DNA of 37,058 bases from Candidatus Sulfotelmatobacter sp. (GTDB lineage: Bacteria; Vulcanimicrobiota; Vulcanimicrobiia; Vulcanimicrobiales; Vulcanimicrobiaceae): contig DATJRY010000018.1 of NCBI GenBank assembly GCA_035504415.1, positions 1-37,058 of the forward strand, in the 5' to 3' direction. Position 1 is the stretch's first letter. Every line of letters begins with the position of its first letter. Shown piece after piece: positions 30,947 through 34,824 of this stretch. The notes below the pieces were generated by a model. The model was not told where the DNA came from, ran no database searches, and was given only the letters and a program-made list of their open reading frames with translations. Position numbers and translations under genes: made by a program.

Positions 30947-32586
30947 CGGTCGGCGACCTCGATCGCGAGGTCGCTACGGTGCGGGAGCATGCCGAGCGCT
31001 GGGCGCGCCTGGGGATCGCCGGGAAGATCCGTCATCTGCGGGCGATGCGCATGCGCACGATCGAGCAGGCCGCGACGTGGGCCGAGCTGGGCGCGCGCGC
31101 CAAGGGCGTCGCCGGCAGCCCGCTGGCAGGCGAGGAATGGTTCTCCGGTCCCTACGCGCTGCTGGCGATGATCGACGCGCTCGGCGCGACGCTCGGTGAC
31201 CTCGCGCGCTTCGGTGCGCCGCACGTTCCGCACGCGCCGCGCGTCCGCGCCGACGGACAGGTCGTGGTCGACGTCTTCCCGGTCTCGACGGCGGACAAGC
31301 TGCTGCTCAGCGGCATACGCGCCGAGACGTGGATGGAGCCGGGCGTCCCGCAAGAGACGGTGCTCACCGAGTACGCCGCCTCGTTCTACCGGCGCGAGCG
31401 GCCCGCGGGGCGGGTGACCCTGGTGCTCGGCGCCGGCAACATCGCCAGCATTCCGCCGCTCGACGTGCTGACGGTCCTGTACGCGCACGGGAGCAGCGCG
31501 ATCCTCAAGCTCAACCCGGTCAACGCGTATCTGCAGCCGGTGTTCGAGCGCATCTTCGCCTCGCTGATCGAGGAAGACGTCCTGCGCATCGTCGGCGGCG
31601 GCGCCGACGTCGGCGCGTACTTGTGCTCGCACCCGGCCGTTGACGCGATCCACTTGACCGGCGGCGAGCGCACGCACGACGCGATCGTCTTCGGCACCGG
31701 TCCGGACGGCGCGCAGCGCAAACGCGAGGGCCGGCCGCTGCTCGACAAGCCGGTCAGCAGCGAGCTGGGCAACGTCACGCCGGTCGTCGTCGTGCCGGGG
31801 CCGTGGAGCGCGCCCGACCTGGCCTTTCAAGCCGCGCACGTCGCGACGATGAAGCTGCACAACGCCGGTGCCAACTGCATCGCCGCGCAAGTACTGGTCG
31901 TGCCGGCCGAATGGTCGCAGACGCCGCGCTTCGTGACGGCCGTCGACGACGCGCTGCGCGCCGCGCCGGCGCGGCCGACCTACTATCCCGGCGTCTCGCG
32001 CACCGAGCGCGCCTTCCTCACCGGCCTCGACGCCGCCGGCGATCCGCTGTTCCGGGAGGAGCTGTTCGCGCCGGTCCTGGGTCAGACCGCACTGCCCGGC
32101 GCCGATCCGGAGACGTTCCTGCGCAACGCGGTCGCGTTCTGCAACGAGCAGGCGCGCGGTACGCTCGGCGTGAGCATCCTGATCCACCCGCGCACGATCA
32201 CCGCGCTCGGTCCCGCCTTCGACGACGCGGTGGCCGCGCTGCGCTACGGCTGCGTCGCGATCAACACCTGGCCCGGCGTCGGCTTCTTGCTGCCGACCGC
32301 GACCTGGGGCGCCTATCCCGGCAACACGCTGGCCGACGTCGGGAGCGGGATCGGCGTCGTCCACAACGCGTTCCTCTTCGACCGCCCGCAGAAGACCGTC
32401 GTGCGCGCGCCGTTCGCGCCGTTCCCGCGTTCGCTGGGCGACGGCGAGCCGACGCTGCTGCCGACGCCGCCGTGGTTCGTCACCCACCGCCGTGCCGACT
32501 CGGTCGCGCGCAAGATGTTCGCCTATACCGCGAAGCCGTCGCTCCCACGCATGGCCGCCACCGCGCTCGCCGCCATGCGGGCCTAG
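30916..32586 (+). CDS. Aldehyde dehydrogenase superfamily protein
   Basis: A 556-residue NAD(P)-dependent dehydrogenase. The catalytic cysteine is Cys321 in LHNAGANCIAAQ. The general base is Glu283 in SSELGNVTP, and the cofactor segment LVLGAGNIASIPPLDVLTVLYAHGSSAILKLNPVN (169-203) is recognisable. ALDHs are usually 480-500 residues; the excess lies in the N-terminal 130 residues and a 40-residue C-terminal tail. The ELGN and LGAGNIAS variants differ from the common ELGGK and GxxxxG, so this is a divergent branch, perhaps with acyl or long-chain substrates. The ATG at 30916 has GGAGG at 30906-30910. Overlap with the glycosyltransferase gene implies co-translation, but no functional link is evident. 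Confidence 0.85.
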   Translation: MEVGTRPVPVTVGDLDREVATVREHAERWARLGIAGKIRHLRAMRMRTIEQAATWAELGARAKGVAGSPLAGEEWFSGPYALLAMIDALGATLGDLARFGAPHVPHAPRVRADGQVVVDVFPVSTADKLLLSGIRAETWMEPGVPQETVLTEYAASFYRRERPAGRVTLVLGAGNIASIPPLDVLTVLYAHGSSAILKLNPVNAYLQPVFERIFASLIEEDVLRIVGGGADVGAYLCSHPAVDAIHLTGGERTHDAIVFGTGPDGAQRKREGRPLLDKPVSSELGNVTPVVVVPGPWSAPDLAFQAAHVATMKLHNAGANCIAAQVLVVPAEWSQTPRFVTAVDDALRAAPARPTYYPGVSRTERAFLTGLDAAGDPLFREELFAPVLGQTALPGADPETFLRNAVAFCNEQARGTLGVSILIHPRTITALGPAFDDAVAALRYGCVAINTWPGVGFLLPTATWGAYPGNTLADVGSGIGVVHNAFLFDRPQKTVVRAPFAPFPRSLGDGEPTLLPTPPWFVTHRRADSVARKMFAYTAKPSLPRMAATALAAMRA

Positions 32587-32648
32587 CGCGAGGCCGCTAA
32601 GCGTTCGGTCGAATAACTATCCTAGCCAACAAGACTCACGTAGGGGGT

Positions 32649-32849
32649 CTAGGCGTGGCTAAGCCTCTTGCGCCGATGCGTTCGACGATCGTCGGCGAGG
32701 TCAGCGGCGATTTCTGCCTCTAACTCAGCGTGGTTGAGTTCTCGACTGTCAGGGACCGCCTCATCGAGTATCTTGACCATTTGAGGTTTGAGCGTCTCTA
32801 GAAAGGCTCGACGTTCCGCCTCGCGCTGCGCCAAAGTCTTCATGCCCAT
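32649..32849 (-). CDS. Small acidic/basic helical protein, unknown
   Basis: A 66-residue protein I do not recognise. It is predicted to be nearly all helix: MGMKTLAQREAERRAFLETL, then a Leu/Glu-rich middle (NHAELEAEIAADLADD) and a basic tail (RRTHRRKRLSHA). No membrane segment or signal is present. I chose the ATG at 32849; a GTG at 32924 would add 25 residues of unlikely composition and would run through an inverted repeat that looks regulatory. It is divergent from the helix-turn-helix gene, with paired direct repeats between them. Lower GC and odd codon use mark it as part of the island. It could be an antitoxin-like or DNA-associated protein, or not a gene at all. Confidence 0.45.
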   Translation of the reverse strand: MGMKTLAQREAERRAFLETLKPQMVKILDEAVPDSRELNHAELEAEIAADLADDRRTHRRKRLSHA

Positions 32850-32876
32850 AGAATCGTTTTTTGGCGTCAAGCGGGC

Positions 32877-32897
32877 GCAGCGTACGAAGTACGTTGC
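32877..32897. repeat. Inverted repeat upstream of the small divergent gene
   Basis: Arms of 9 bases (32877-32885 and 32889-32897) with a 3-base spacer match at 8 of 9 positions. It lies 28 bases before the chosen start of the 66-residue gene and could be an operator or an RNA hairpin in its leader. Confidence 0.5.
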
Positions 32898-32941
32898 GGA
32901 TGGGTCTGATCTAGGTCTGTTCACGATGGTCTGTTAGGGTT

Positions 32942-32984
32942 CCATATTCGGGACCCTTATGGTACCATATTTGGGACGCTTATG
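32942..32984. repeat. Two 20-bp direct repeats at 23-bp period (iteron/operator-like)
   Basis: CCATATTCGGGACCCTTATG (32942-32961) and CCATATTTGGGACGCTTATG (32965-32984) match at 18 of 20 positions, separated by GTA. The junction forms a perfect 12-bp palindrome TATGGTACCATA (32958-32969). The block sits 26 bases before the helix-turn-helix gene, between divergent genes. Near two helical turns in period, the repeats fit binding of protein copies on one DNA face, as in operators or plasmid iterons. Confidence 0.8.
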
Positions 32985-33010
32985 CCACCGTTTCATAGGC
33001 CCTGGACTCA

Positions 33011-33541
33011 GTGGCCGCGCAATTAGCCCCGAAGGCCGCTGGGACCGGCCGGTTTGCCAAATGCGACCCGGAGTGGCTTCGCATGTCTCTGGGAGCCCGA
33101 GAGTTCCGGGTCCTGCTTGCCCTCTCCCTTCATGCGGACTGGCGTCCAGCCGGCTTCGGCCGTTGCTACCCTAAGCGTGACACTATTGCTCTGGCGACGA
33201 ACCTCCAGGTATCGCATGTAAGCGAGGCGGTCAGCGCCCTCTCGGAGGTTGGGCTTATAACCGTTGTGAGACTCGGCCGCAAGAATGTTTATTACGTTCG
33301 GCAGATAGGCTCAAGCGAGCCCATGCCGCCATCGGATGCCGAGCCCTTTTTTACCTACCTGCGTGGTCTTGGGATTCGGTTGATCGTTGCACCCGATGGC
33401 CAGTTGCACTACGCGACGGGCAGTCATCGGTTCGAGAACTTGCCCGGCTTAGCTCGGGCTATCTTCAACGATTACGCAAGCGGCCTGATTCCTCGCAAGT
33501 TCAACGCGGCGATATCCCTACTCTCTCCCGAGCAACCCTGA
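33011..33541 (+). CDS. Winged helix-turn-helix DNA-binding protein
   Basis: A 176-residue protein with a winged-helix domain. ALSLHADWRPAGFGRCYPKRDTIALATNLQVSHVSEAVSALSEVGLITVVRLGRKNVYYV (about 37-96) contains the helix-turn-helix (about 55-80) and a wing with a basic turn (LGRKN, 88-92). The N-terminal RFAKCDPEWLRM resembles the lead-in of replication-initiator-like or MarR-like proteins. The second half (about 105-176) is a small domain with no motif I recognise. It starts at a GTG (33011) with no clear ribosome-binding site. Its stop overlaps the PIN gene start (TGATG). It is the likely binder of the direct repeats just upstream. GC is lower than the host background. Confidence 0.72.
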   Translation: MAAQLAPKAAGTGRFAKCDPEWLRMSLGAREFRVLLALSLHADWRPAGFGRCYPKRDTIALATNLQVSHVSEAVSALSEVGLITVVRLGRKNVYYVRQIGSSEPMPPSDAEPFFTYLRGLGIRLIVAPDGQLHYATGSHRFENLPGLARAIFNDYASGLIPRKFNAAISLLSPEQP

Positions 33542-34074
33542 TGACCGAGATTGCGCGCGCCGTGATCGATACAGGCATCTGGATTGATATCTATCTTCAG
33601 AACTACATCACGCCGCCACCTAAGCAGCCGTACTGCGACATACTAGATGCCTTCTTTGATGCAGAGTTTGTCCCAGTATACAGTCAAGCATCCTTCGATG
33701 AGCTTCTGCGGATGCTGACGACGAGCCGACGCGTCGCGCGCGCACATAATCTGAATCCAGCGAGTGCCGGGGCCTTTGTTGGACTCATCTTCGCTAAGGC
33801 CGGCGAAGAGGTAGTGATCCCAGGAACGCTCGCAGTCAGTACCGATCGTGATGACAATCCAATCATCGAGACAGCCTACGTCGGTCGCGTTGACTACCTC
33901 GTCGCAGACGATGCTCATTTTCACGAACCTGCTGTGCTAGCTCTGATGAAGTCTCTTGGGACCGAAGTGCTCTACTCGAAGCAGTTTCGCCGAGAGCTTC
34001 GCCGCCGACGCGAGGCCTCAGAACGTGCAGACGCGCGGGATGTCGCCAATGCAAGTTCCGACACGGGTGAATAA
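33541..34074 (+). CDS. PIN-domain protein (putative toxin-type ribonuclease)
   Basis: A 177-residue PIN-fold protein. The acidic metal site is visible: Asp10 in AVIDTGIWID, Glu54 in SFDELLRML, Asp104/Asp105 in STDRDDNPIIETA and Asp124 in YLVADDAHF. This order and the DDN..(I/F)xETA..g.vDYLV.DD pattern match COG1569-type PIN toxins, which cut RNA and are paired with an antitoxin. The basic C-terminus (RRELRRRREASERADARD) is longer than usual (typical length about 140). The coupled upstream protein is a winged-helix regulator, not the usual ribbon-helix-helix or AbrB antitoxin. Function as a growth-inhibiting toxin is inferred. GC is again lower than the surround. Confidence 0.82.
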   Translation: MTEIARAVIDTGIWIDIYLQNYITPPPKQPYCDILDAFFDAEFVPVYSQASFDELLRMLTTSRRVARAHNLNPASAGAFVGLIFAKAGEEVVIPGTLAVSTDRDDNPIIETAYVGRVDYLVADDAHFHEPAVLALMKSLGTEVLYSKQFRRELRRRREASERADARDVANASSDTGE

Positions 34075-34155
34075 GCGACGTTCCACATACACCCACCATT
34101 CACGACTCGTTTTTAATTCATGCCCGGAAAGTTCGGCCTGCCCCATCCGAGAGTT

Positions 34156-34824
34156 CTACGGCAACGGCAACAAGCTGGCCGGTGGTGCGAGGGTTGCGGC
34201 ACCCTGTTCGGGGACACCGGATTCGACCAGCTGACGGTATTGGGCCAGGCGGGCGCGCAGGCGCGCGAGGTCCTCGGCCAGGACGTCGCTCTGGCGCAGC
34301 GCCGTGCCGAGGTCGGCGGTGTCGTACGTGTAGTCGAAGCGGCGCAGCGCGTTGATGATCTGCTGGTTCTGCGCTTCGAGCGCGACGTAGCCGCGGCGCA
34401 GGCTCGACCCGGTGTACGCGTACGAGGGGTAGTTCGAGACGACGATGTCGCGCTTGAGCTCGGCCTGCTCGATCTCGTTGCGCACGTCCTTGATGCGGTC
34501 GTCATCCGGCGAGTAGTGCGCCGCGATCGCGAGCGCGTCGATCGCATCCTCGAAGTGCGAGAGCGAATAGTACTTCTGGGCCAAGCGCAGCTGGACGTCG
34601 GTCAGCCCGGCGCGCGCATGTTCGTCGGTCGGGTCGATCTTGAGCGCCAGCTGGTACGCGATCGAGGCGTCGGGATAGTTCTTGTGCGCCATCGCCAGGT
34701 CGCCTTGGTGGTCGCGCGTGCTGACGATCCATTGCGCGACGCCGGCGCCGCAGCCGGTGGTCGTCAGCGACAGCCCGAGGCCGGCCAGGGCGAGCACGAG
34801 GACTCGAAGGATGCGCTTCTCCAT
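34156..34824 (-). CDS. Tetratricopeptide-like lipoprotein
   Basis: A 222-residue envelope protein. Residues 1-25 form a lipoprotein signal (LGLSLTTTGCG, Cys25). The following helices DHQGDLAMAHKNYPDASIAYQLALKIDPTDEHARAGLTDVQLRLAQKYYSLSHFEDAIDALAIAAHYSPDDDR contain about two TPR repeats (about 37-110). A Gln/Arg-rich helical region and a Pro-rich tail follow. TPR lipoproteins typically scaffold envelope complexes. The ATG at 34824 has GGAAAG upstream. It is 10 bases downstream of the Amj-like flippase gene, so it may be co-transcribed and serve cell-envelope assembly; that is inferred. It converges with the PIN gene across about 80 bases in which I see no clear terminator. Confidence 0.82.
   Translation of the reverse strand: MEKRILRVLVLALAGLGLSLTTTGCGAGVAQWIVSTRDHQGDLAMAHKNYPDASIAYQLALKIDPTDEHARAGLTDVQLRLAQKYYSLSHFEDAIDALAIAAHYSPDDDRIKDVRNEIEQAELKRDIVVSNYPSYAYTGSSLRRGYVALEAQNQQIINALRRFDYTYDTADLGTALRQSDVLAEDLARLRARLAQYRQLVESGVPEQGAATLAPPASLLPLP

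What the first reader, a model, noticed from the sequence alone, without database searches (positions are those of the whole stretch)
32942..32984. Twenty-bp direct repeats at 23-bp period with a central 12-bp palindrome
Two near-identical repeats (18/20) lie just upstream of the winged-helix gene and between divergent genes. The repeat junction creates TATGGTACCATA. The layout suits an autoregulatory operator or a minimal iteron set. No other repeat of this kind was noticed in the window.
Basis: seen in the sequence. Interest (0 to 1): 0.55.

Follow-up and report, generated by a model that had tools for sequence, protein, structure and literature searches.

The report
Phage-type origin repeats beside toxin gene
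Two DNA repeats in a small acquired stretch of a bacterial chromosome look like the landing sites of a virus-type replication-starting protein, next to a gene for a likely RNA-cutting toxin; the parts are of known kinds, but the way they are put together here is unusual.

Summary
The repeats are real: two tandem 23-bp units (32939-32984), found nowhere else in the 4.17-Mb genome. The same two-part cassette (iterons, then AACAGACC-type 12-mers) sits next to homologous winged-helix proteins elsewhere: in 2 of the 3 closest relatives, and the 12-mers lie inside the lambda-O-like gene in 30 of 64 viral stretches that carry them (0 of 80 with a scrambled motif). So this is a minimal phage-O-type replication origin, with the neighbouring winged-helix protein as its likely binder. 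It differs from all examples seen: the cassette lies upstream of the gene and points away from it, and the gene overlaps a PIN RNase toxin gene. The whole is a 1.57-kb insert absent from the same site in four sister genomes; a fifth sister has a Xre-RES toxin-antitoxin pair there. Most likely it now controls the wHTH-PIN operon. Binding, replication and toxicity are untested. The 'minimal iteron set' reading is supported, the operator reading is plausible, the central palindrome is not special.

The parts
32588..34155 (.). Acquired insert (1568 bp, 57% G+C against 69% for the window) between the stop codons of two convergent chromosomal genes
   Evidence: Flanks abut (0, 11, 36, 37 bp apart) in sister genomes G090, G092, G088, G096; G+C
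32939..32961 (-). Iteron 1 (23-bp unit; 21-mer 32942-32962 has a CCATA-N11-TATGG dyad)
32962..32984 (-). Iteron 2 (23-bp unit; 21-mer 32965-32985 has a CATA...TATG dyad)
32958..32969 (.). Perfect palindrome TATGGTACCATA at the unit junction; not unusual by itself
   Evidence: 34 perfect 12-bp palindromes in the window
32928..32935 (-). 12-mer core 1, AACAGACC, 6 bp from iteron 1
32914..32921 (-). 12-mer core 2, AACAGACC
32903..32910 (-). 12-mer core 3, ATCAGACC (one mismatch)
33011..33541 (+). Winged-helix protein, 176 aa: DNA-binding domain of phage replication initiators (O-like) plus a small C-terminal part; presumed iteron-binding protein
33541..34074 (+). PIN_3-family RNase toxin candidate, 177 aa; start codon overlaps the stop codon of the winged-helix gene
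   Evidence: PF13470, 40.1 bits, cut-off 27; D10, E54, D105, D124 invariant in 3 sequences
32649..32843 (-). Divergent small ORF (64 aa from ATG 32843; 91 aa if from GTG 32924, which would overlap the 12-mers); no family; possible antitoxin-like tail, weak

Best explanation
The repeats are two iterons of a minimal lambda-O-type replication origin: two 23-bp initiator sites, each with a partial internal dyad, followed 6 bp away on the minus strand by three AACAGACC-type 12-mers that correspond to the strand-opening part. The winged-helix protein encoded next door carries the DNA-binding domain of phage O-like initiators and most likely binds these iterons. The 1.57-kb insert is a derivative of a phage or integrase-island replication module in which the origin lies upstream of, and points away from, the initiator gene. 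That gene is now coupled to a PIN RNase toxin gene (1-nt overlap). In its present chromosomal setting the most likely working mode is that the winged-helix protein sits on the iterons just upstream of its own start and holds down the wHTH-PIN operon; whether the cassette can still open and fire as an origin is open. Shown by sequence: repeats, 12-mers, layout, protein families, empty site in sisters. Inferred: binding, repression, origin activity, toxicity, and which protein (if any) is the antitoxin.
For: (1) The winged-helix protein's best PHROGs are replication initiation protein (phrog_270, 3.4e-07) and O-like; AF2 with 15 sequences gives a confident winged helix at residues 20-97, and the viral fold library returns phage HTH, replication-initiator and lambda GpO N-terminal proteins. 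(2) Its three full-length relatives in the phylum (L017, L018, L019) all carry 22-25-bp tandem repeats within about 100 bp of the gene end; L017 and L018 continue with AATAGACC or AACAGACC 12-mers. Arrays of 18-28 bp: 9 of 24 wHTH loci (own included) against 2 of 22 same-phylum and 5 of 60 PIN loci. (3) The window has the same 12-mers 6 bp from the iterons: AACAGACC twice within 22 bp, 0 of 100 whole-window shuffles; three chained cores, 0 of 20000 local shuffles. (4) Joint test (iterons plus at least 2 cores): one place in the window, this one; 2 of 23 wHTH relatives; 0 of 22 same-phylum and 0 of 60 PIN loci. (5) Of 64 viral stretches with two AACAGACCA, 30 have a homologous wHTH ORF with the 12-mers inside it on the same strand, and 25 of those 30 have iterons upstream; for a scrambled motif 0 of 80 loci have such a wHTH. 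(6) Two iterons plus the adjacent AT-rich region are reported as the minimal unwinding-competent lambda fragment (PMC7466680, passages seen). (7) The iterons end 26 bp before the GTG start, the place of an operator.
Against: The order and orientation of the cassette match none of the 30 viral or 2 phylum examples, all of which have it inside or after the gene on the coding strand. Only two iterons and three irregularly spaced 12-mers (14 and 11 bp). No DnaA box with 1 or fewer mismatches in the insert, no helicase loader, no integrase. TIGR01610 (phage O N-terminal) is far below its cut-off (17.5 against 45.5 bits). No sigma-70 promoter is reported near the iterons; my best hand-picked hexamers match only 8 of 12. 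The C-terminal part is modelled with low confidence. Four pieces of named phages with O-like proteins have tandem repeats and mostly 12-bp repeats but not the AACAGACC motif (0 of 4 in the joint test). Three of 23 wHTH relatives also have non-chance repeats upstream, with other periods (27, 33, 34). The internal dyad of the window unit is weak against shuffles (P 0.09).
Confidence: 0.75

Rival explanations
1. The repeats are only an operator of a PIN-type toxin-antitoxin operon: the winged-helix protein is the antitoxin/repressor, binds both 23-bp units as dimers, and the origin resemblance is a leftover or coincidence.
For: wHTH and PIN genes overlap by one base, as in TA operons; the same chromosomal slot holds a Xre-RES TA pair in sister G094; wHTH proteins paired with PIN toxins are described (Rv2018/Rv2019, PMC2701414, passages seen); the repeats lie just before the gene.
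Against: The adjacent AACAGACC 12-mers are not needed for an operator yet match O-type origins; the wHTH family is that of replication initiators; 0 of 60 PIN_3 relatives have such a wHTH partner and 0 of 23 wHTH relatives have a PIN.
Confidence: 0.3
2. A still functional mini-origin: excised or transferred copies of the insert can replicate with the wHTH protein as the only initiator, and the PIN toxin acts as an addiction function.
For: The minimal lambda origin is two iterons plus the AT-rich part (PMC7466680); short wHTH frames of 154-167 aa stand beside iteron plus 12-mer or AT-rich cassettes in integrase islands L186 and L188; the order opening region - iterons - rep is that of F oriS (PMC13028717, passages seen).
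Against: No integrase, excisionase, primase, loader or DnaA box in the insert; single chromosomal copy; the cassette points away from the gene.
Confidence: 0.15
3. The divergent 64-aa ORF is the true antitoxin: PIN_3 toxins elsewhere sit next to small proteins that share a C-terminal tail, and this ORF ends in a similar tail; the wHTH protein would then be a third, regulatory component.
For: 41 hand-picked neighbours of 60 PIN_3 loci and the tail resemblance; only 82 of 5000 shuffles of the ORF reach its score with a hand-chosen subset of tails.
Against: Weaker with all tails (216 of 5000 shuffles reach it), and several other window frames score as well; no homolog in the other 148 genomes of the phylum set; the subset was chosen by me after seeing the resemblance.
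Confidence: 0.15
4. Chance or decaying repeat without function.
For: Only two units; no second copy of the insert in other genomes searched.
Against: Joint presence of iterons and 12-mers next to the matching protein family; shuffle tests.
Confidence: 0.08

Closest known systems
Lambda-type origin (ori-lambda, O protein, iterons)
   Same: Winged-helix initiator domain, tandem iterons of about 20 bp with internal dyad, strand-opening stretch next to them; two iterons are the lambda minimum (PMC7466680, PMC5043065, passages seen)
   Different: Origin lies outside and upstream of the gene and points away from it; the opening stretch is AACAGACC 12-mers at about 49% G+C; no O C-terminal half, no P-like loader, a PIN toxin instead
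Iteron plasmid origins such as F oriS/repE
   Same: Order opening region - iterons - rep gene, room for autoregulation (PMC13028717, passages seen)
   Different: Single winged-helix domain, no DnaA box with 1 or fewer mismatches, no operator separate from the iterons, chromosomal
Origins of phage-inducible chromosomal islands
   Same: Small integrase islands with a rep gene and iterons next to an AT-rich stretch (PMC6092414, passages seen); the closest wHTH relatives sit on or near integrase islands
   Different: No integrase, excisionase, primase or packaging genes in this insert; induction cannot be tested
PIN_3 / VapBC-like toxin-antitoxin operons
   Same: PIN_3 toxin as second gene of an overlapping pair with a DNA-binding first gene
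   Different: Partner is an O-like winged helix; found in 0 of 60 PIN_3 relatives

Membership tests
Lambda-O-type replicon | Winged-helix initiator domain of the O/replication-initiation families | tested here: met
   PHROGs phrog_270 3.4e-07 and phrog_678 4.7e-05; fold; but TIGR01610 below its cut-off
Lambda-O-type replicon | Two or more iterons with internal dyad | tested here: met
   Two units; arms of 5 and 4 bp; dyad strength over shuffles is weak (P 0.09)
Lambda-O-type replicon | Strand-opening repeats next to the iterons | tested here: met
   AACAGACC array 6 bp away
Lambda-O-type replicon | Origin inside or 3' of the initiator gene on the same strand | tested here: not met
   Cassette is upstream and inverted; 30 of 30 viral wHTH examples have it inside the ORF
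Lambda-O-type replicon | Helicase-loader gene or loader-binding half | tested here: not met
   Only the small ORF, wHTH and PIN in the insert
Lambda-O-type replicon | Autonomous replication | not testable with these tools
   Needs experiment
Iteron plasmid origin | DnaA boxes near the iterons | tested here: not met
   None with 1 or fewer mismatches to TTATCCACA in the insert; two with 2 mismatches, far from the iterons
Iteron plasmid origin | Opening region, iterons, rep gene in this order | tested here: met
   32903-32935, 32939-32984, 33011-33541
Type II PIN toxin-antitoxin pair | PIN toxin with catalytic acidic residues | tested here: met
   PF13470 over cut-off; D10, E54, D105, D124 invariant in a 3-sequence alignment
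Type II PIN toxin-antitoxin pair | Neighbouring antitoxin of a known PIN-associated family | tested here: not met
   No antitoxin family hit for wHTH or small ORF
Type II PIN toxin-antitoxin pair | Toxicity neutralised by partner | not testable with these tools
   Needs experiment
Autoregulatory operator | Repeats overlap the promoter of the regulator gene | tested here: inconclusive
   Position fits; no promoter reported at 9 of 12
Autoregulatory operator | Binding by the encoded protein | not testable with these tools
   Needs gel shift or footprint

The most novel reading that the evidence does not exclude
AACAGACC-type 12-mers are a widespread, sequence-conserved opening element of phage-O-type replicons (iterons change freely, the 12-mer does not), and this insert is a natural origin-toxin switch: one initiator-like protein reads its own origin and thereby sets the output of a PIN toxin, so that toxin dose follows origin copy number or occupancy.
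Probability: 0.2. Interest if true: 0.7.

Novelty: new variant of a known kind. Interest (0 to 1): 0.45.

Why it matters
If right, a replication-origin cassette has been reused as, or kept as, the control region of a toxin operon, which links replication control and toxin-antitoxin regulation in 1.6 kb. Independently, the AACAGACC 12-mer gives a short DNA signature with which phage-O-type origins can be found in raw sequence, also where the initiator is small or unannotated, and it makes testable the question of which single-stranded sequence such initiators capture on opening.

Tried and rejected
Close homologs of the insert: none. wHTH protein in genome contigs (0 confirmed of 104 pattern stretches), in plasmids at E 1 (none), in phages at E 1 (4 weak records, best E 0.01); PIN in viral contigs (0 of 13 stretches) and plasmids (none); wHTH in 22 genomes that hold PIN_3 relatives (0 of 22; no positive control there) and in 291 genomes of the phylum of L040 (1 weak hit).

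The exact iteron as a widespread operator: one viral match to the pattern CATATTYGGGACNCTTATG, lying inside a coding frame of an unrelated gene, so rejected.

P0002 as antitoxin by its tail: lead only. The subset of tails was chosen by me after seeing the resemblance.

Single-sequence AF2 of the wHTH protein was useless (pLDDT 40). The PDB fold search gave only general winged helices (best E 7e-03).

A stricter 12-mer pattern from L017 had 0 viral matches.

Short direct repeats at the insert ends as attachment sites: GTTYGGYCG has 6 matches in the window against 3.6 expected, rejected.

Literature for the 12-mer: a full-text search for AACAGACCA (368 papers hold the string; the 10 listed look unrelated; listing only) and searches (listings) gave no description of it. 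So it was not found in those searches, which cover open-licence papers only.

Full report
What was claimed and what is there. The finding names two 20-bp direct repeats at 23-bp period (32942-32984). They are there as described, 18/20 identical, and TRF gives one period-23 array at 32934-32984. No other match with up to 3 mismatches exists in the window or in the whole 4.17-Mb assembly. Shuffles: 0 of 1000 for the island stretch, 2 of 40 for the whole window. The palindrome TATGGTACCATA is one of 34 perfect 12-bp palindromes in the window and should not be given weight.

Setting. The repeats lie in a stretch of 57% G+C inside a 69% G+C contig. The stretch lies between two convergent genes, an aldehyde dehydrogenase ending at 32586 and a minus-strand gene whose stop is at 34156. 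Of 10 sister genomes of the genus, four have these flanks next to each other, 0, 11, 36 and 37 bp apart (G090, G092, G088, G096). G094 has 983 bp there, with a Xre_MbcA_ParS/RES toxin-antitoxin pair. G089 has 1.46 kb with two methyltransferase-type genes. The other four (G087, G091, G093, G095) do not show both flanks side by side and say nothing. So 32588-34155 is an insert of 1568 bp in a slot that takes different cargo. That naming is an inference from one relative.

Genes of the insert. 33011-33541 encodes a 176-aa winged-helix protein. Pfam finds nothing over a cut-off; PHROGs gives replication initiation protein (3.4e-07) and O-like families. Aligned with O-like proteins of viral contigs, AF2 yields a confident winged helix at residues 20-97 (mean pLDDT of the whole 75.6), and the viral fold library returns phage HTH, replication-initiator and lambda GpO N-terminal proteins. 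The part after residue 105 is modelled with low confidence. 33541-34074 encodes a PIN_3 protein (40.1 bits, cut-off 27) with the acidic residues D10, E54, D105 and D124 kept (that these are the catalytic ones is recalled); its start overlaps the stop of the wHTH gene. A divergent ORF at 32649-32843 has no family and no homolog in the other 148 genomes of the phylum set.

The overlooked half. The three full-length relatives of the wHTH protein in the phylum (L017, L018, L019) all have 22-25-bp tandem repeats within about 100 bp of the gene end, and several longer relatives have them inside the gene. Over all 24 wHTH loci, own included, 9 have arrays of 18-28 bp, against 2 of 22 other loci of the phylum and 5 of 60 PIN loci. 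In L017 and L018 the repeats are followed by AATAGACC or AACAGACC 12-mers; L027 has diverged 12-mers and L019 an AT-rich stretch. Reading the window on the minus strand gives the same: after the two 23-bp units, 6 bp on, come AACAGACC, AACAGACC and ATCAGACC, 14 and 11 bp apart. AACAGACC twice at that spacing occurs once in the window and in 0 of 100 shuffles; three chained cores occur in 0 of 20000 shuffles of the flanking 60 bp. In L017, L018 and the window the 12-mers lie outside the wHTH frame, so their likeness is not a matter of protein code.

Test in viral contigs. A scan for two AACAGACCA within 1-6 bp gave 64 stretches. Thirty have a homologous wHTH ORF (E at most 2.3e-4), and in 30 of 30 the 12-mers are inside that ORF on the same strand; 25 of the 30 have iterons of 17-37 bp just before, mostly 5-17 bp away, farther (32-56 bp) in the rest. 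With a scrambled motif, 0 of the 80 loci delivered have such a wHTH. The nine proteins sent to PHROGs (six viral, three of the phylum) hit replication-initiation families. A joint test (iterons plus at least two cores) finds this locus alone in the window, 2 of 23 relatives, 0 of 22, 0 of 60, 0 of 4 named phage pieces, and 26 of 64 viral stretches. Three of the four named phage pieces have other 12-bp repeats after their iterons, so AACAGACC is one version of the opening repeats, not a universal one.

Where the relatives live. L186 holds an integrase, an HTH_17 protein, the wHTH, iterons and 12-mers between ordinary chromosomal genes; L187 has an integrase before the same module and ends at a contig end; L188 has integrase and resolvase genes among many small genes. 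They look like compact integrase islands; they resemble phage-inducible islands in having the origin 3' of the rep gene (PMC6092414, passages seen), but induction and packaging were not tested.

What is different here. In this window the origin cassette is upstream of the gene and points away from it, giving the order 12-mers, iterons, initiator gene, toxin gene. None of the 32 examples with 12-mers (30 viral, 2 of the phylum) is like that. No PIN gene was found near any of the 23 wHTH relatives or the 64 viral loci (HMM from a three-sequence alignment), and no such wHTH near any of 60 PIN_3 relatives, whose partners, where I could pick one by hand (41 of 60), are small proteins.

Mechanism. 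Lambda O dimers bind 19-bp inverted-repeat iterons (PMC5043065, passages), and two iterons with the adjacent AT-rich stretch are the smallest fragment that opens (PMC7466680, passages). Plasmid Rep proteins bind both iterons and single-stranded 13-mers (PMC4081077, passages). In F, oriS precedes repE, which is autoregulated (PMC13028717, passages). By analogy the window protein should bind the two units; because they end 26 bp before its GTG start, binding would also shut its own wHTH-PIN operon. The promoter itself is not identified: the scan reports none, and my best pair read by eye (TTCACG at 32920, 17 bp, CATATT at 32943-32948) matches only 8 of 12. I therefore rate 'iterons of an O-type origin' as likely (about 0.85), 'operator of the wHTH-PIN operon today' as somewhat better than even, and 'live origin' as unlikely (about 0.15). 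TA function of the pair is suggested by the PIN family, the gene overlap and the Xre-RES pair in the same slot of a sister, and is not shown. wHTH-PIN pairs of another kind (DUF433-wHTH with PIN, Rv2018/Rv2019) are in print (PMC2701414, passages).

Verdict. It is a new variant of a known kind: a two-iteron, phage-O-type origin cassette, inverted relative to its initiator gene and tied to a PIN toxin.

Noticed in passing
viral loci L122-L185: AACAGACCA 12-mers lie inside lambda-O-like wHTH genes in 30 of 64 viral stretches, after iterons in 25 of these; a DNA signature of such origins that I did not find described in my searches.
   Followed up: partly
L104:518-1500 (sister G094, same intergenic slot): A Xre_MbcA_ParS / RES toxin-antitoxin pair sits at the site that carries the wHTH-PIN insert in the window: a slot for exchangeable toxin modules.
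   Followed up: yes
L186:6277-10700, L187:9622-13922, L188: Compact integrase islands of the same phylum with the wHTH-iteron module (12-mers in the first two, an AT-rich stretch in the third).
   Followed up: partly
L028:2065-2282 and L031:831-998: Two different genomes share related repeats (ACTCCGGGTGAGCCGGTGAGC-like) upstream of long wHTH genes, besides iterons inside the gene in L031.
   Followed up: no
PIN_3 loci L040-L099: Small proteins next to PIN_3 toxins, with different N-terminal parts, share a C-terminal tail like EExxAExxAVRxxR, presumably the PIN-binding part.
   Followed up: partly
window 32649-32843 (-): The divergent small ORF ends in LNHAELEAEIAADLADDRR, loosely like those tails (82 of 5000 shuffles score as well with a hand-chosen subset, 216 of 5000 with all tails).
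   Followed up: partly
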